DNA of 64,000 nt from Alphaproteobacteria bacterium (GCA_021774575.1 JAJFIX010000023.1:130166-194165), one strand, 5' to 3'. Shown: positions 56,408 through 64,000, counted from the first letter of the stretch. The notes: generated by a model from the letters alone, not told the origin. A program made the numbers and translations.

Positions 56408-56599
56408 GGGGGATATTAATTCTTCCGGGCTAAAGGGTGGCCCGGAATGGCTACCCGTGTTAGCGTTTCGCCTATGGGCACTGAAATCCGAGCAAACTTC
56501 TCGGCCGGAAAGCTTGATTGGCGGGCGCGAAATGGCACGCTGAGCAATAGGCTGAACGGTGAGCTATGCGCGAGCCTATTGGACACTGACCGACCGGAT

Positions 56600-57532
56600 A
56601 TGCGCCGTTGGCCTATATCATTGGCGGTCAAGAGGAGCCTTGGGGCATTTGCCACCATTGCCGCTTTGCTGGTGGAGCCAAATCTTGCAAACGCGCAAAT
56701 TACCTTCGGTCCCACTGTCTTGCCGCAGCTGCAAACACCACAAATCCAGATCAATCCGGGCCTTCAGCTGGGGCCGATTCAGCCCCAATTCGTGATCGTC
56801 GATTTTCAAGCGACTTTGGCCCAGCCGATATCCGTATCCCAGGGCGGAGTCGGGCAGTTTGCGACCCAGTCGCTCGCCTGGTTCTGCCAAGGCAATATCT
56901 GCACATCGCGTGGCACCAGCCAGTTGGCGACCGTCGCCAACTGTCAGGATTTGGTTCGCCAGTTCGGACCGGTCACAGATTATCTGACCACTCAACGACG
57001 TTTTAGCGCCAGTGAATTGGCCGCCTGCAATCGCGTCGCGCCGCCAATTATTCAATTTGGGAATGGTCAGACCAATGGTCAGATATTGAGAAACGGCCCC
57101 ATTATTATCGTCCCCAACAATCAAACGACACGCCGGGTACCTGACCCGCCGACCCTTGATATCCGGCCGCCGACGATAACGCCGCAAGGGCCAAGAATTA
57201 CCATCCCCGGCGCCGACACAAACATAAGGGGTGCCCCCAAGGCGCCGCGCCGCGTTGTCGCCGTGCCGAAGGCGCCGTCGCCGGGGGGTACTACCGAAAC
57301 ACGTTCGGACGATAATACCGTGCGCACGGTGCTGCTGACCGTCACCGGCAAGGGGCTTTCCGGCGCCCCGGTTTTTCCATCGGGATTTGTCCCCGGTACG
57401 ATCCGCACGCAGGCCTTGACCGTGACCGGTAAGGGCCTGTCGGGTGCTCCCGTATTCCCCACGGGATTTGTCCCCGGAACGATCCGCACCACGCCTTTGA
57501 CGGTGACTGGCTTGGGGGCAATAGCTGAGTGA
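56600..57532 (+). CDS. Secreted protein with C-terminal 27-residue repeats
   Basis: 310 residues from ATG 56600, chosen because it begins a signal peptide (RRWPISLAVKRSLGAFATIA, cleavage near ANAQ); the frame is open to 56447. The middle holds paired cysteines (WFCQGNICTSRG, NCQDLV, AACNRV). A Pro/Thr-rich linker precedes two full and one partial copy of a 27-residue repeat (LTVTGKGLSGAPVFP then SGFVPGTIRT). Family not recognised; probably periplasmic or outer-surface. Its stop overlaps an ATG of the next frame. Confidence 0.55.
   Translation: MRRWPISLAVKRSLGAFATIAALLVEPNLANAQITFGPTVLPQLQTPQIQINPGLQLGPIQPQFVIVDFQATLAQPISVSQGGVGQFATQSLAWFCQGNICTSRGTSQLATVANCQDLVRQFGPVTDYLTTQRRFSASELAACNRVAPPIIQFGNGQTNGQILRNGPIIIVPNNQTTRRVPDPPTLDIRPPTITPQGPRITIPGADTNIRGAPKAPRRVVAVPKAPSPGGTTETRSDDNTVRTVLLTVTGKGLSGAPVFPSGFVPGTIRTQALTVTGKGLSGAPVFPTGFVPGTIRTTPLTVTGLGAIAE
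57335..57529 (+). repeat. 81-bp in-frame tandem repeat
   Basis: Units at 57335-57415 and 57416-57496 are near identical, with a third truncated unit (LTVTGLG) at 57497. They encode LTVTGKGLSGAPVFP...GFVPGTIRT. In-frame duplication of the C-terminal region of the preceding gene. Confidence 0.85.
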
Positions 57533-58988: not shown

Positions 58989-59678
58989 TTGGGCGTTTTG
59001 GTCGTCTGTTCCGGCGGTTTGGATTCGGTGGTGCTGGCTCATCAAGTCGGCAAGGACCGGGATCTCGACCGGCTGCTGTCATTTGATTACGGCCAGCGGC
59101 ACAAAAAAGAGCTGGATTTTGCCGCCCTTGCCGCCGCCGATTTGGGGGTGCGCCATGATATTATCGATATCTCCAACGTCGCCCAGTTCCTCACCGGCTC
59201 GGCACTGACCGATGATGTCGCGGTGCCCGACGGGCATTATGCGGAAACTTCGATGCAGGCGACCATTGTGCCCAACCGCAATGCGATCATGCTCTCCGTG
59301 GCCTATGGGGTGGCCGCCGGTGCCGGCGCGAGGGAAGTTGCGATCGCCGTCCATGGGGGCGATCATTTCATTTATCCCGATTGCCGACCGGGGTTTATCG
59401 ATGCCTTTCGGAGGATGGAAAATCAGGCCCTGGAGGGCTCGTGGGAGATCGATCTCTACGCGCCTTATGTCGATAAATCGAAAGCCGATATTGTGCGCAC
59501 CGGTGCCGCACTTGGCGTGAAGTTTGAAAGAAGTTGGAGCTGCTACAAAGGCGGGGCGACCCATTGCGGGCGCTGCGGCACCTGCGTCGAACGGGCCGAG
59601 GCGTTTCATCTGGCCGGTGTCGCCGACCCCACCGACTATGAAGATGCCGATTTTTGGCGTAGCGCGGGATCACCCTGA
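58989..59678 (+). CDS. queC: 7-Cyano-7-deazaguanine synthase (QueC)
   Basis: 229 residues from TTG 58989; AAGGAG lies 10 bp upstream and an in-frame TGA at 58983 rules out a longer form. PP-loop SGGLDSVVLA near 8-17, YGQRHKKEL near 34, and zinc cysteines SCYKGGATHCGRCGTC near 187-202. It makes preQ0 for queuosine tRNA modification (or DNA deazaguanine). No other que genes or dpd genes are adjacent. Starts 3 bp after the DehI-like gene. Confidence 0.92.
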   Translation: MGVLVVCSGGLDSVVLAHQVGKDRDLDRLLSFDYGQRHKKELDFAALAAADLGVRHDIIDISNVAQFLTGSALTDDVAVPDGHYAETSMQATIVPNRNAIMLSVAYGVAAGAGAREVAIAVHGGDHFIYPDCRPGFIDAFRRMENQALEGSWEIDLYAPYVDKSKADIVRTGAALGVKFERSWSCYKGGATHCGRCGTCVERAEAFHLAGVADPTDYEDADFWRSAGSP

Positions 59679-59679
59679 C

Positions 59680-59908
59680 GTCTAACCTCGTCGACCCGAC
59701 CGATATTGCCGCGTCGGTCATGGGCTCATCGACGGCCCAGTTTTTTCACGACCATATGCTGGTCAAAGAATCCGAAACCTCCAAGGCGACCCCCTGGCAC
59801 CAGGATATGCCCTATTACTATGTCGACGGACCCCAGTCGGTGAGTTTTTGGGTCTCCGTCGATTCGTGGCGTCGGACCCCGTCGACCTCAGTGATCCGAC
59901 TTGGCTAA
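59680..59908 (+). pseudogene. Phytanoyl-CoA dioxygenase fragment fused to an array tail
   Basis: The frame reads an internal PhyH segment (SSTAQFFHDHMLVKE, TPWHQDMPYYYVDG with the iron-binding HxD, then VSFWVSVDS) without its N-terminus, and at about 59870 passes into the 3' end of the downstream repeat family in a different frame, stopping at 59908. Both ends of the original gene are gone. Remnant of a gene cut by the array. Confidence 0.75.
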
Positions 59909-59978
59909 AACCCGGCGCCGCCTGGTGGGGCAGTGACCTACCGTCACCGCCCCCAAGACGAACACCGGATTGACCGAC

Positions 59979-60007
59979 TTGGCGTGATCTCGGTTTGGTT
60001 GTATGAT
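59979..60007 (+). promoter_or_regulatory. Promoter of array unit 1
   Basis: TTGGCG (59979-59984), 17-bp spacer, TATGAT (60002-60007). Sigma70-type. Confidence 0.65.
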
Positions 60008-60037
60008 GGCCGCAAATAAACATGGTGGAGTGGTGCG

Positions 60038-60955
60038 GTGGGCTTCTGTCGTAAATTCAAAGTTTTTGTCATTCGGGCCGGCCTGCTGGCCGTCATGGCG
60101 ACGCTGGTGCCCTCCGGCGTGTCCGCCCAAAAGCTGTGGGTCCCCCGGCCTAAGGGCGCGCCGGATGTCCCGACACCGATGGAGGTCTATCGCCGATCCG
60201 GGGTTGCGGTGGCGATCATTGCCGAGGATCTGGAATTACGCGCCGAGCTTGATCGGTACACGCGTGAATTAATCGACTTCTTGGTACCGAGGACGGACGT
60301 GGGGCCAGTGTCCACCGCTGAGAGGACCGAGTATGTGATTGCCGTTAGTTTATCGCTGGACCTGATGCGGCGGAACTTGGACCGCTATGTCTTGCGCACC
60401 ACCGACGAAAAACTCGTCGCTTATTATGCCCGTATGCGGGACATGTTAGTGGAACTCGCGGCGATGGAGACGTTTTCCTGCGTCGATTGGATTAGGGAAC
60501 GGCTTCTTTATACGTCAATCGGCGACCGGGACACCGGTGGATTATCGGACCCGGTATTTTTCGCATGGACCGGTGCGTTTGAGGCGATGGTGCGGTCCGC
60601 CTATGGTCGGCGACCCGACACGATTGTCGATCCGGCGATTGCGGAGCTGCGCAAGCAACTCCTGTTCCAAGCGGCGCCGACGCTGGATTATGCCCTGACT
60701 ATTCGCCGGTATTACAATTTTTCGAATACCGAGGACCGGGTGCGAACCCTCATCATGAGTGCCTGCACCCAGCGCATCCGCTATATCGATGTGGTTCTGG
60801 CCCTGCCGGTCCCCACCGCCGCAGCGATCCTGCGGGCCGAACATGTCCCGCCGTCGGACCCCGTCGACCTCAGTGATCCGACTTGGCTAAAACCCGGCGC
60901 CGCCTGGTGGGGCAGTGACCTACCGTCACCGCCCCCAAGACGAACACCGGATTGA
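60038..60955 (+). CDS. Array protein 1, secreted, unknown family
   Basis: 305 residues, GTG start 8 bp after GTGGAG. Signal peptide about 1-30 (KFKVFVIRAGLLAVMATLVP, cleavage near VSAQ). Then a Pro-rich start (WVPRPKGAPDVPTPMEVYRR), a mainly helical body with YVLRTTDEKLVAYYARMRD near 128 and two cysteines (FSCVDWI, MSACTQRIRYI), and a fixed C-terminus WLKPGAAWWGSDLPSPPPRR. Function not recognised; likely periplasmic or released, with one possible disulfide. Confidence 0.72.
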   Translation: MGFCRKFKVFVIRAGLLAVMATLVPSGVSAQKLWVPRPKGAPDVPTPMEVYRRSGVAVAIIAEDLELRAELDRYTRELIDFLVPRTDVGPVSTAERTEYVIAVSLSLDLMRRNLDRYVLRTTDEKLVAYYARMRDMLVELAAMETFSCVDWIRERLLYTSIGDRDTGGLSDPVFFAWTGAFEAMVRSAYGRRPDTIVDPAIAELRKQLLFQAAPTLDYALTIRRYYNFSNTEDRVRTLIMSACTQRIRYIDVVLALPVPTAAAILRAEHVPPSDPVDLSDPTWLKPGAAWWGSDLPSPPPRRTPD

Positions 60956-60960
60956 CCGAC

Positions 60961-60989
60961 TTGGCGCGATCTCGGTTCGGTTGTATAAT
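60961..60989 (+). promoter_or_regulatory. Promoter of array unit 2
   Basis: TTGGCG (60961-60966), 17-bp spacer, perfect TATAAT (60984-60989). Confidence 0.75.
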
Positions 60990-61019
60990 ACCCGCAAATA
61001 AACATGGTGGAGTGGTGCG

Positions 61020-61934
61020 GTGAGTCTCAGTTGTAAGTTCAGGGTTTTTGTCATTCGAGCCGGCCTGCTGGCCGCCATGGCGGCGCTGGTGCCCTCCGGC
61101 GCATTCGCCCAGACCTGGGTTCCGCGGCCCCCCGGCGCGCCGGATGCGCCGACACCAATGGAGGTCTATCGCCGGTCCGGTGTTGCGGTGGCGATAATTG
61201 CCGAGGATCCAGAACTACGCGCCGAACTTGATGATGATATCGGCAGATTTATTGACTTTTTGATCCCGAGGGGGGGCGGGCACCCGATGCCTACCGCCGA
61301 TAGGGCCGAATATGTCAGTGCCACTGATTTGACGCTGGATCTCATGGGGCGGACTGAGGGTCGCTATGTCTTGCGCACCACCGACGAAAAACTCGTCGCC
61401 TATTATGCCCGAACGCGGGACACCCTGGCGGAGCTCACAGCGATGGAGACGTTTTCCTGTGTCGATTGGATAAGGGATAAACTTTTTTTTGGGCCTATCG
61501 GCGACCGGGATGCCGGTAGGTTTTCGGACCCAGTTTATTATGGGTGGACCGGTGCCTTCGAGGCGATGGTGCGAGCCTCATATGGTCGGCGGCCCGACGC
61601 GGTTGTCGATCCGGCGATTGCCGCGCTGCGCGCGCAAATCTTGTTCCAGGCGGCACCGACGTTGGACTATGCCCTGACTGTCCGCTCGAATAATGGGTAT
61701 CCGGGAACCGAGGGGCGGGTGCGGACCGTGATGATGAGTGCCTGCACCCAGCGGATCCGCTATATCAATGCGGTGTTTGCCCTGCCGGTCCCCACCGCCG
61801 CAGCGATTCTGCGGGCGGGACATGTCGCGGTGACGGATCCCGTCGACCTCAGCGACCCGGCGTGGCTGAAACCCGGCGCCACCTGGTGGGACAGTGACCT
61901 CCCGTCACCGCCACCAAGACGAACACCAGATTGA
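61020..61934 (+). CDS. Array protein 2, secreted, unknown family
   Basis: 304 residues, GTG start. Same signal peptide, cysteines (FSCVDWI, MSACTQRI) and C-terminus as copy 1, but with its own variable stretches: PRGGGHPMPTADRAEY near 88, DLTLDLMGRTEGRY near 109, CVDWIRDKLFFGPIGDRD near 147 and RSNNGYPGTEGR near 223. It is the most diverged of the four copies in the centre. Confidence 0.72.
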   Translation: MSLSCKFRVFVIRAGLLAAMAALVPSGAFAQTWVPRPPGAPDAPTPMEVYRRSGVAVAIIAEDPELRAELDDDIGRFIDFLIPRGGGHPMPTADRAEYVSATDLTLDLMGRTEGRYVLRTTDEKLVAYYARTRDTLAELTAMETFSCVDWIRDKLFFGPIGDRDAGRFSDPVYYGWTGAFEAMVRASYGRRPDAVVDPAIAALRAQILFQAAPTLDYALTVRSNNGYPGTEGRVRTVMMSACTQRIRYINAVFALPVPTAAAILRAGHVAVTDPVDLSDPAWLKPGATWWDSDLPSPPPRRTPD

Positions 61935-61939
61935 CCGGC

Positions 61940-61968
61940 TTGGCGAGATCTCGGTTCGGTTGTATAGT
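61940..61968 (+). promoter_or_regulatory. Promoter of array unit 3
   Basis: TTGGCG (61940-61945), 17-bp spacer, TATAGT (61963-61968). Confidence 0.6.
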
Positions 61969-61998
61969 ACCCGTAAATAATCATGGTGGAGTGGTGCG

Positions 61999-62913
61999 GT
62001 GGGCCTCAGTTGTAAGTTCAGAGTTTTTGTCATTCGAGCCGGCCTCCTGGCCGTTATGGCGGCGCTGGTGCCGCCCGGCGCATTCGCCCAGACCTGGGTT
62101 CCGCGGCCCCCCGGCGCGCCGGATGCCCCGACACAAATGGAGGTCTATCGGCGGTCCGGTGTTGCAGTGGCGATAATTGCCGAGGATCTGGATCTGCGCG
62201 CCGAACTTGATGATGATATCGGCAAGTTTATTGACTTCATAATACCGCGGACGCCAATGCATGGAGTGTCCACCGCCGATGGAGCCGAGTATGTCGTCGC
62301 CGTTAGTTTGTCGCTGGACCTGATGCGGCGGAACTTGGACCGCTATGTTTTGCGCACCACCGATGAAAAGCTCGTTGCCTATTATGCTCGTATGCGGGAT
62401 ACGCTGGTGGAACTCGCGGCGATGGAAACATTTTCCTGCGTCATTTTGATCGGGGAAGGGCGCCTTTCGAGTGGGATCGGCGACTGGGATACCGGCGGGT
62501 TATCGGACCCTGTTTTTTTCGCATGGACTGGTTCCTTCGAGGCGATGGTGCGGGCCTCCTATGGTCGGCGGCCCAACAGGATTGTCGATCCGGAGACTGC
62601 CGCGTTGCGCGCCCAAATATTGTTCGAGGCGGCGCCGACGCTGGACTATGCACTGAGTATCCGCCGGTATTTCCATTTTCCCGAAACTGAGGATCGATTG
62701 CGCACCGTGATCATGAGCGCCTGTACCCAACGCATCCGTTATATCGATGCGGTTCTAGCGCTGCCGACCCCCACCGCCGCAGCGATCCTGCGGGCTGGGC
62801 ATGTCGTGGCGACCGACCCCGTCGACCTCAGTGATCCGGATTGGCTAAAACCCGGCGCCGCCTGGTGGGGCAGTGACCTACCGTCACCGCCCCCAAGACG
62901 AACGCCGGATTGA
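61999..62913 (+). CDS. Array protein 3, secreted, unknown family
   Basis: 304 residues, GTG start. Shares VSLSLDLMRRNLDRYVLRTT with copy 1 but PRTPMHGVSTAD and LPTPTAAAILRAGHVVATDP with copy 4, a mosaic. After the first conserved cysteine it has a unique stretch (FSCVILIGEGRLSSGIGDW). Both cysteines and the fixed ends are kept. Confidence 0.72.
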   Translation: MGLSCKFRVFVIRAGLLAVMAALVPPGAFAQTWVPRPPGAPDAPTQMEVYRRSGVAVAIIAEDLDLRAELDDDIGKFIDFIIPRTPMHGVSTADGAEYVVAVSLSLDLMRRNLDRYVLRTTDEKLVAYYARMRDTLVELAAMETFSCVILIGEGRLSSGIGDWDTGGLSDPVFFAWTGSFEAMVRASYGRRPNRIVDPETAALRAQILFEAAPTLDYALSIRRYFHFPETEDRLRTVIMSACTQRIRYIDAVLALPTPTAAAILRAGHVVATDPVDLSDPDWLKPGAAWWGSDLPSPPPRRTPD

Positions 62914-62919
62914 CCTGGC

Positions 62920-62948
62920 TTGGCGCGATCTCGGTTCGGTTGTATGAT
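62920..62948 (+). promoter_or_regulatory. Promoter of array unit 4
   Basis: TTGGCG (62920-62925), 17-bp spacer, TATGAT (62943-62948). Confidence 0.65.
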
Positions 62949-62978
62949 GGCCGCAAATAATCATGGTGGAGTGGTGCG

Positions 62979-63893
62979 GTGGGCCTCAGTTGTAAGTTCA
63001 GAGTTTTTGTCATTCGAGTCGGCCTGCTGGCCGTTATGGCGGCGCTGGTGCCCTCCGGCGCATTCGCCCAGACCTGGGTCCCCCGGCCCCCCGGCGCACC
63101 GGACGCCCCCACACCGATGGAGGTCTATCGCCGGTCCGGTGTTGCAGTGGCGATAATTGCCGAGGATCCAGAACTGCGCGCTGAACTTGATGATGAAATC
63201 GGCCGCTTTATCGACTTCATAATACCGCGGACGCCAATGCGCGGGCGTGCCACCGCCGAAGGGGCCGAATACGCTATTGCTGTTAGTTTGACGCTGGACC
63301 TGATGCGGCAGACCGAGGACCGCTATGTCTTGCGCACCGCCGACGAAAAACTCGTTATATATTACGCCAGTATGCGGGACGCTCTGGTGGAACTCGCGGC
63401 GAAGGAGGCATTTTCCTGCATCGAATGGATAAAATACAGATATATATTTGGGTCAATCAGCGACCGCACCCCTGGCGAGCTGTCGGACTCCGTATTTTTC
63501 GCGTGGACCGGCGCGTTTGAAGCGCTGGTGCGGGCCTCCTATGGGCGATGGCCTGACACGATTGTCGATCCGGCGATTGCCGCGTTGCGGGAGCAAATCT
63601 TGTTCCAGGCGGCGCCGACGCTGGACTATGCTCTGACTTTCCGCCGCTACAATAATTTTCCTGAAACCGAGGACCGGCGGCGGACCGTCATGATGAGCGC
63701 CTGTACCCAACGCATCCGTTATATCGATGCGGTTCTGGCGCTGCCTACCCCCACCGCCGCATCGATCCTGCGAGCCGGGCATGTCGTGGCGACGGACCCC
63801 GTTGACCTCAGTGACCCGGCATGGCTGAAGCCCGGCGCCGCCTGGTGGGGCAGTGACCTACCGTCGCCGCCCCCAAGACGAACACCGGATTGA
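62979..63893 (+). CDS. Array protein 4, secreted, unknown family
   Basis: 304 residues, GTG start. PRTPMRGRATAEGAEY and LPTPTAASIL link it to copy 3, whereas VSLTLDLMRQTEDRY has features of copy 2. Its post-cysteine stretch is unique (FSCIEWIKYRYIFGSISDR). Two cysteines and the C-terminus WWGSDLPSPPPRR are conserved. Confidence 0.72.
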   Translation: MGLSCKFRVFVIRVGLLAVMAALVPSGAFAQTWVPRPPGAPDAPTPMEVYRRSGVAVAIIAEDPELRAELDDEIGRFIDFIIPRTPMRGRATAEGAEYAIAVSLTLDLMRQTEDRYVLRTADEKLVIYYASMRDALVELAAKEAFSCIEWIKYRYIFGSISDRTPGELSDSVFFAWTGAFEALVRASYGRWPDTIVDPAIAALREQILFQAAPTLDYALTFRRYNNFPETEDRRRTVMMSACTQRIRYIDAVLALPTPTAASILRAGHVVATDPVDLSDPAWLKPGAAWWGSDLPSPPPRRTPD

Positions 63894-63898
63894 CCGAC

Positions 63899-63927
63899 TT
63901 GGCGCGATCTCGGTTTGGTTGTATAAT
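63899..63927 (+). promoter_or_regulatory. Promoter of array unit 5
   Basis: TTGGCG (63899-63904), 17-bp spacer, perfect TATAAT (63922-63927). Confidence 0.75.
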
Positions 63928-63957
63928 ACCCGCAAATAAACATGGTGGAGTGGTGCG

Positions 63958-64000
63958 GTGAGTCTCAGTTGTAAGTTCAGAGTTTTTGTCATTCGAGCCG
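63958..64000 (+). CDS. Array protein 5, partial at right edge
   Basis: GTG start and the first 14 codons (SLSCKFRVFVIRA), identical in type to copy 2. It shows that the array continues beyond the window; nothing can be said about its length. Confidence 0.7.
   Translation, partial: MSLSCKFRVFVIRA

What the first reader, a model, noticed from the sequence alone, without database searches (positions are those of the whole stretch)
59870..64000. Tandem amplification of an unrecognised secreted-protein gene, at least five units
Four full and two partial units of about 980 bp, each a self-contained promoter-gene cassette for a secreted protein of about 304 residues with two conserved cysteines and fixed ends but variable internal stretches. 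I recognise no known domain. Conserved export signal and termini with varied interior resemble surface or secreted antigen, receptor or toxin/immunity families kept diverse by copying. The array leaves the window, so its true size is unknown.
Basis: partly seen in the sequence, partly recalled or inferred. Interest (0 to 1): 0.82.

Follow-up and report, generated by a model that had tools for sequence, protein, structure and literature searches.

The report
Exported orphan genes beside lipase toxin
A bacterium carries five head-to-tail, individually promoted copies of a gene for an exported protein found in no other genome searched, and they lie tail-to-tail against a lipase-like toxin gene of a polymorphic toxin family, so they are best read as a stockpile of periplasmic immunity proteins, which is plausible and testable but not shown.

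Summary
The array is real. There are exactly five intact ~304-residue genes: four in the window and the fifth completed just beyond it. The period is 979-982 bp, each gene has its own sigma-70-like promoter, and a 3' remnant precedes the first. Copies are 79-89% identical (dS 0.26-0.54), so this is not an assembly artefact. They evolve under purifying selection (dN/dS 0.22-0.36) with significant mosaicism. No Pfam, NCBIfam, PHROG, PADLOC or PDB relative exists, and none was found in the searched genomes of its order and class, the GTDB scan, plasmids or phages. The structure model failed (pLDDT 36).

What the window hides is the neighbour. Past its edge, the array runs tail-to-tail into a lipase-like gene (GHSLGGG) whose N-terminal region recurs at several other sites of this genome with unrelated C-termini, as in polymorphic toxins. 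Two further, degenerate unit sites also abut this toxin family. A sister toxin has a hydrophobic C-terminal stretch and a tail-to-tail integral-membrane protein. My best reading is a homogeneous polyimmunity-type array of exported proteins protecting the periplasm against lipase toxins (confidence 0.55). Neutralisation is untested, the toxin gene carries an internal stop codon, and its export route is unknown.

The parts
58989..59678 (+). queC (left flank, not part of the array)
   Evidence: Pfam QueC E=3.5e-56
59687..59869 (+). Internal fragment of a PhyH-type dioxygenase gene, both ends lost, joined to the unit remnant
   Evidence: PF05721 PhyH E=3.1e-7 on 63 residues; relatives carry complete ~270-390 aa frames
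59870..59973 (+). 3' remnant of a sixth unit (C-terminal ~35 codons)
   Evidence: Near-identical to the tail of unit 1 for ~130 bp; protein search match
59979..60007 (+). Promoter-like site of unit 1
   Evidence: TTGGCG-17-TATGAT
60038..60955 (+). Unit 1, exported orphan protein, 305 aa, GTG start
   Evidence: ORF, alignment A1
60961..60989 (+). Promoter-like site of unit 2
   Evidence: TTGGCG-17-TATAAT
61020..61934 (+). Unit 2, 304 aa, GTG start
   Evidence: ORF, alignment A1
61940..61968 (+). Promoter-like site of unit 3
   Evidence: TTGGCG-17-TATAGT
61999..62913 (+). Unit 3, 304 aa, GTG start
   Evidence: ORF, alignment A1
62920..62948 (+). Promoter-like site of unit 4
   Evidence: TTGGCG-17-TATGAT
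62979..63893 (+). Unit 4, 304 aa, GTG start
   Evidence: ORF, alignment A1
63899..63927 (+). Promoter-like site of unit 5
   Evidence: TTGGCG-17-TATAAT
63958..64000 (+). Start of unit 5. The complete gene is L009 10124-11038, 304 aa. It is followed after 22 bp by the convergent lipase-like toxin gene (L009 12542-11061, minus strand), which lies outside the window

Best explanation
The five genes form a homogeneous polyimmunity-type array. Each makes a Sec-exported, helix-rich protein (about 30 kDa mature, two conserved cysteines) that acts in the periplasm. There it would bind and block a lipase-like toxin domain, or its close variants, encoded by the convergent gene and by relatives of it in other strains. 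Copies are produced by tandem duplication through the conserved promoter/signal and 3' blocks, are reshuffled by recombination between copies, and are each kept functional by selection. The variable middle (residues about 71-160 and 220-232) would set specificity. Shown here: the array, promoters, export-signal sequence pattern, purifying selection, mosaicism, orphan status, the convergent lipase-like neighbour, and the polymorphic-toxin architecture of that neighbour's family. Inferred: immunity function, periplasmic site of action, specificity in the variable middle, antibacterial role of the lipase.
For: (1) The array ends 22 bp from the stop codon of a convergent 493-aa lipase-like ORF (GHSLGGGLG; weak Lipase_3). 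(2) That gene's N-terminal part recurs at C13, C17, C29, C36 and C43 (62-86% identity at the better-preserved sites), and where a C-terminus is readable it is unrelated. Its lipase domain also sits on a different carrier at C4 (39-44% identity). Exchange of C-termini and carriers is the hallmark of polymorphic toxins. (3) The other two unit-bearing places, both on C36, also abut this toxin family: a degenerate unit with the same convergent junction to a lipase pseudogene, and a promoter/5' remnant beside a toxin start. (4) The C13/C29 toxin has a hydrophobic C-terminal stretch and is likewise convergent, 86 bp away, with a small membrane protein with several predicted membrane segments, a pair that recurs in degraded form at the start of C17. 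The C17 toxin C-terminus is instead followed in the same direction by two homologous acidic ORFs. Opposite-polarity immunity genes are typical of membrane-acting colicins and colicin M (PMC6668396). (5) Lipase immunity (Tli) proteins carry lipoprotein or Sec signals because the toxin acts in the periplasm, and Tle5b has three Tli5b immunity proteins (PMC13133936). (6) Exported TipC immunity genes occur in tandem runs of up to 15 with conserved ends, a variable centre and inter-paralogue recombination (PMC9484751); the units show the same pattern. (7) All five array units are intact while the lipase genes beside units carry an internal TAG or are pseudogenes, as expected if immunity outlives toxins.
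Against: No sequence similarity to any known immunity family. There is no independent second lineage in which unit and lipase co-occur: both exist only in this genome, and the unit sites are probably one expanded cluster, so the co-occurrence counts little more than once. The C16 lipase gene has an in-frame TAG before its lipase part. The toxin N-terminal region has no evident signal peptide, and the one T6SS marker tested is absent, so export is unexplained. The C4 lipase lacks a unit homologue; its neighbour is an unrelated membrane-anchored protein. The structure prediction gave no usable model.
Confidence: 0.55

Rival explanations
1. A lineage-specific exported protein of unrelated function (periplasmic or surface protein, stress or nutrient binding) that was duplicated. 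Its position next to toxin genes only reflects a shared, rearranged genomic island.
For: Toxins and units share one island-like, rearranged neighbourhood (truncated PhyH gene at the left edge; pseudogenes on C36). Other exported or surface proteins lie near on C36.
Against: The same tail-to-tail junction with a lipase gene is kept at both unit loci. A different toxin of the same family has a different gene in the same position.
Confidence: 0.28
2. The units are lipase-specific foldases or secretion partners (Lif-like helper proteins), helping rather than blocking the lipase.
For: Lif proteins are helical periplasmic partners encoded beside lipases (own knowledge). The low-confidence model is all helix.
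Against: No Pfam hit to any foldase. Five copies, opposite transcription, and a lipase without an evident Sec signal.
Confidence: 0.05
3. The units are themselves exported toxins or effectors diversified by copying.
For: Exported, variable interior, tandem.
Against: No partner immunity gene between units, each unit has its own promoter, no toxin-domain hit, and all copies are under purifying selection.
Confidence: 0.07
4. Neutral or decaying amplification with no current function.
For: Remnant units and pseudogenes exist at the left edge and on C36.
Against: All five array genes are intact at dS up to 0.54 with dN/dS 0.22-0.36, and all promoters and starts are kept.
Confidence: 0.05

Closest known systems
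TipC immunity arrays of streptococcal TelC (T7SS) (PMC9484751)
   Same: Tandem runs of non-identical exported immunity genes next to a toxin that acts outside the cytoplasm; conserved 5' and 3' blocks, variable centre, recombination between paralogues
   Different: TipC is a lipoprotein immunity to a lipid II phosphatase in Gram-positives; no sequence relation was detected, and here each unit has its own promoter and lies opposite to the toxin
Tli immunity proteins of T6SS lipase effectors Tle (PMC13133936)
   Same: Sec or lipoprotein signal, gene beside a lipase effector, sometimes two or three paralogues
   Different: No DUF3304 or other Tli domain, the one T6SS marker tested (VipB) is absent, opposite transcription, no lipobox
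Homogeneous polyimmunity loci of polymorphic toxin systems (PMC3482391)
   Same: Tandem paralogues, same orientation, small intergenic gaps, no toxin between copies
   Different: The unit is not one of the described Imm families; an individual promoter per copy; a toxin directly at the end of the array
Colicin-type toxin/immunity pairs acting on the membrane (e.g. PMC6668396)
   Same: Immunity gene adjacent and opposite in polarity
   Different: Those immunity proteins are single genes (pore-forming types: membrane proteins); here five exported soluble proteins and a lipase-like toxin
MafB / Microscilla-N lineage-specific toxin N-terminal domains (PMC3482391)
   Same: A constant N-terminal region found only in one lineage with variable C-terminal toxin domains
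   Different: In those, the domain is associated with a signal peptide; none is evident here

Membership tests
Homogeneous polyimmunity locus | Tandem paralogues in one orientation with small gaps, uninterrupted by toxin genes | tested here: met
   Five units, gaps of about 65 bp between stop and next start, no intervening gene
Homogeneous polyimmunity locus | Unit belongs to a recognised immunity family | tested here: not met
   No Pfam, NCBIfam, PHROG or PADLOC hit
Homogeneous polyimmunity locus | Copy number varies between strains | not testable with these tools
   No second genome with the family was found
Homogeneous polyimmunity locus | Copies neutralise toxins | not testable with these tools
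   Needs an experiment
Tli lipase immunity | Sec or lipoprotein signal directing the protein to the periplasm | tested here: met
   Basic-hydrophobic-AFA|Q signal pattern in all units, hydrophobic segment 7-25, no lipobox cysteine; read from sequence, no SignalP available
Tli lipase immunity | Gene adjacent to a lipase effector | tested here: met
   Convergent lipase-like gene 22 bp away; antibacterial effector role not shown
Tli lipase immunity | Known Tli domain (e.g. DUF3304) | tested here: not met
   No Pfam hit up to E=10
Tli lipase immunity | T6SS present in the genome | tested here: not met
   VipB (PF05943) absent from a 97%-complete genome, positive in the E. coli control; other T6SS genes not tested
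Polymorphic toxin family (the neighbour) | Conserved N-terminal region with unrelated C-terminal domains | tested here: met
   N-terminal region at C13, C16, C17, C29, C36 and C43; C-termini of C16, C13/C29 and C17 unrelated to each other
Polymorphic toxin family (the neighbour) | Recognised trafficking domain | tested here: not met
   No hit for the N-terminal region in Pfam, NCBIfam or PHROGs
Membrane-acting colicin/immunity pair | Immunity gene adjacent and opposite in polarity | tested here: met
Membrane-acting colicin/immunity pair | Integral-membrane immunity protein | tested here: not met
   Units show only the signal-peptide hydrophobic segment in four of five; the C29 partner does look like a membrane protein
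Lif lipase foldase | Match to a known lipase-chaperone Pfam family | tested here: not met
   No family hit

The most novel reading that the evidence does not exclude
A genome-restricted, modular antibacterial toxin system. A constant N-terminal region of unknown export route carries lipase-like, hydrophobic (possibly pore-forming) or other C-termini. Each membrane- or periplasm-directed toxin is paired tail-to-tail with an immunity gene of matching location, and the lipase branch has evolved a recombining five-gene array of a new exported immunity family.
Probability: 0.35. Interest if true: 0.65.

Novelty: new variant of a known kind. Interest (0 to 1): 0.5.

Why it matters
If right, it adds a new exported immunity protein family and a new toxin N-terminal region with an unknown delivery route. 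It also gives a small natural series of five recombined immunity variants against one lipase type, usable to map which residues set specificity. It shows too how an array that looks orphan inside a window can be assigned a likely role from the gene just beyond its edge.

Tried and rejected
Assembly duplication: rejected, copies differ by 11-21%. Known family: no hits in four libraries or PDB. Mobile or phage gene: no match in phage, plasmid or viral collections. Positive selection: not found. T6SS delivery: VipB absent. Homology between units and the C4 lipase's neighbour: blastp hint E=0.06 not supported by profile comparison. A weak toxin N-terminus hit in G369 lies in a locus filled by ordinary genes and was taken as chance. 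The G038 and G295 lipase hits (E about 5e-4 to 8e-4) were not pursued. AlphaFold on the four window copies: pLDDT 35.6, pTM 0.29, not usable, so no fold search was run. RNA families: none in 55-64 kb.

Full report
OBSERVATION. Four complete genes of 304-305 codons with GTG starts lie at 60038-60955, 61020-61934, 61999-62913 and 62979-63893. A 3' remnant begins at about 59870 and the fifth gene begins at 63958. The genome holding the window (3.50 Mb, 46 contigs, 97% complete) continues the contig by 2.7 kb. The fifth unit is complete there and is the last. Spacings are 982, 979, 980 and 979 bp. Promoter-like sites TTGGCG-17-TATRNT sit a few bases after each preceding stop; these five are the only promoter-like sites in the region. 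All units have a basic, then hydrophobic, then AFA|Q-type signal sequence without a lipobox, a mature part of about 30 kDa and two invariant mature cysteines.

AGE, SELECTION, EXCHANGE. Nucleotide identity between array units is 79-89%, dS 0.26-0.54, dN/dS 0.22-0.36. The ends are conserved and the middle varies: variable columns 26%, 58%, 48% and 20% in four successive parts. No 20-codon window exceeds pN/pS of about 0.67; high values fall at residues 71-120 and around 141-160. Neighbouring informative sites are more compatible than shuffled ones (P = 0.0005 for three window sizes), and exact tracts of 52-95 bp occur between otherwise about 82% identical copies. This is a mosaic of old duplicates, each under constraint. 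It is neither a fresh amplification nor a positively selected antigen.

DISTRIBUTION. No relative was found in the 24 held genomes searched for the order, 385 genomes of the class, a scan of 84,980 GTDB species genomes with two peptide patterns, plasmids, phages or viral contigs. No family library or PDB entry matches. AlphaFold on the four window copies gave pLDDT 35.6 and pTM 0.29 with only helices; I draw nothing from it beyond 'probably helical'.

LEFT EDGE. Between queC and the array lies an internal PhyH-dioxygenase fragment with both ends lost (PF05721 E 3.1e-7), fused to the unit remnant. Relatives carry complete PhyH frames. The array therefore sits at a rearrangement point.

RIGHT EDGE AND THE TOXIN FAMILY. 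Twenty-two bp after unit 5 is the stop codon of a convergent 493-aa ORF with GHSLGGGLG and a weak Lipase_3 match (E 0.0045, below cut-off). Read upstream, the same gene continues in frame through one TAG into an N-terminal region that runs off the contig. That N-terminal region occurs at C13, C17, C29, C36 and C43 as well. The readable C-termini differ: lipase-like (C16), a hydrophobic stretch near residue 262 of the C29 piece (C13/C29), another sequence (C17). The lipase domain also occurs at C4 on a different N-terminal carrier (39-44% identity). The constant region was not found outside this genome. This is the architecture of polymorphic toxins with a lineage-specific N-terminal region (compare PMC3482391). 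No antibacterial activity has been shown.

CO-LOCATION. Units occur at three places and each abuts this toxin family. (a) The C16 array. (b) A degenerate unit on C36 (8554-9402) joined to a convergent lipase pseudogene, the junction being alignable to that of C16, with a toxin N-terminal remnant on its other side. (c) A remnant at C36:163-310 beside a toxin start at the very end of that contig. For the same reason the co-location is close to one evolutionary event, not three.

PARALLEL PAIR. The C13/C29 toxin is convergent with a 162-residue protein with about three predicted membrane segments, a pairing seen again in degraded form at the start of C17. At C17 the toxin C-terminus is followed, in the same direction, by two acidic ORFs related to each other (E about 0.002). 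In colicins, opposite-polarity immunity is typical for membrane-acting types and colicin M (PMC6668396). A lipase acting on membranes from the periplasm would need an exported immunity protein, as with Tli proteins (PMC13133936). Runs of exported TipC immunity genes have the same conserved-ends, variable-centre, recombining pattern (PMC9484751).

MECHANISM. The best-supported account is a homogeneous polyimmunity-type array (term from PMC3482391) of exported proteins that bind lipase-like toxins in the periplasm. Shown: anatomy, constraint, mosaicism, context. Inferred: binding, neutralisation, role of the variable middle, toxin delivery. Confidence 0.55. The main rival is an exported protein of unrelated function sharing an island with toxins (0.28).

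LIMITS. One draft genome of unnamed species; no second lineage; signal peptides judged by eye and hydropathy only; one T6SS marker tested; the TAG may be real or an error; failure to find homologues reflects the collections and sensitivities used.

Noticed in passing
window 59687-59869: Internal fragment of a PhyH dioxygenase gene, both ends lost, fused to the unit remnant, next to queC.
   Followed up: yes
window 57336-57511: 81-bp in-frame tandem repeat (2.2 copies) in an ORF of unknown family at 56447-57532.
   Followed up: partly
L009 12573 region (contig C16): In-frame TAG in the lipase-like toxin gene just before its lipase part; no frameshift.
   Followed up: partly
L031 4080-4160 (contig C17): A 16-17 bp tandem duplication (AATCCTGGCGATCAAAA) shifts the frame of another toxin of the family; could be decay or phase variation.
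   Followed up: partly
L031 5763-6335 (contig C17): Two adjacent acidic ORFs, weakly homologous to each other, downstream of a toxin C-terminus; candidate tandem immunity genes.
   Followed up: partly
contig ends of C13, C16, C29, C36, C43: Genes of the toxin family sit at contig ends, so this repeat probably breaks the assembly; C13 end and C29 start share the residues PDTR and may adjoin.
   Followed up: partly
L010 14338-14904 and 15600-15998 (contig C36): Another pair of similar short exported orphan proteins (MSLSIK..GAVAPA..SLALIFATSGVLLVTG).
   Followed up: no
L010 3697-5985 and 6431-7882 (contig C36): Inverse autotransporter with beta-helix passenger and a paralogous beta-helix protein near the degenerate unit.
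   Followed up: no
L030 (contig C4, 6.6 kb): A second lipase-domain protein (787 aa) on another carrier, with a neighbour weakly similar to a phage internal virion protein (PHROG E 8e-4) and a membrane-anchored 402-aa protein downstream.
   Followed up: partly
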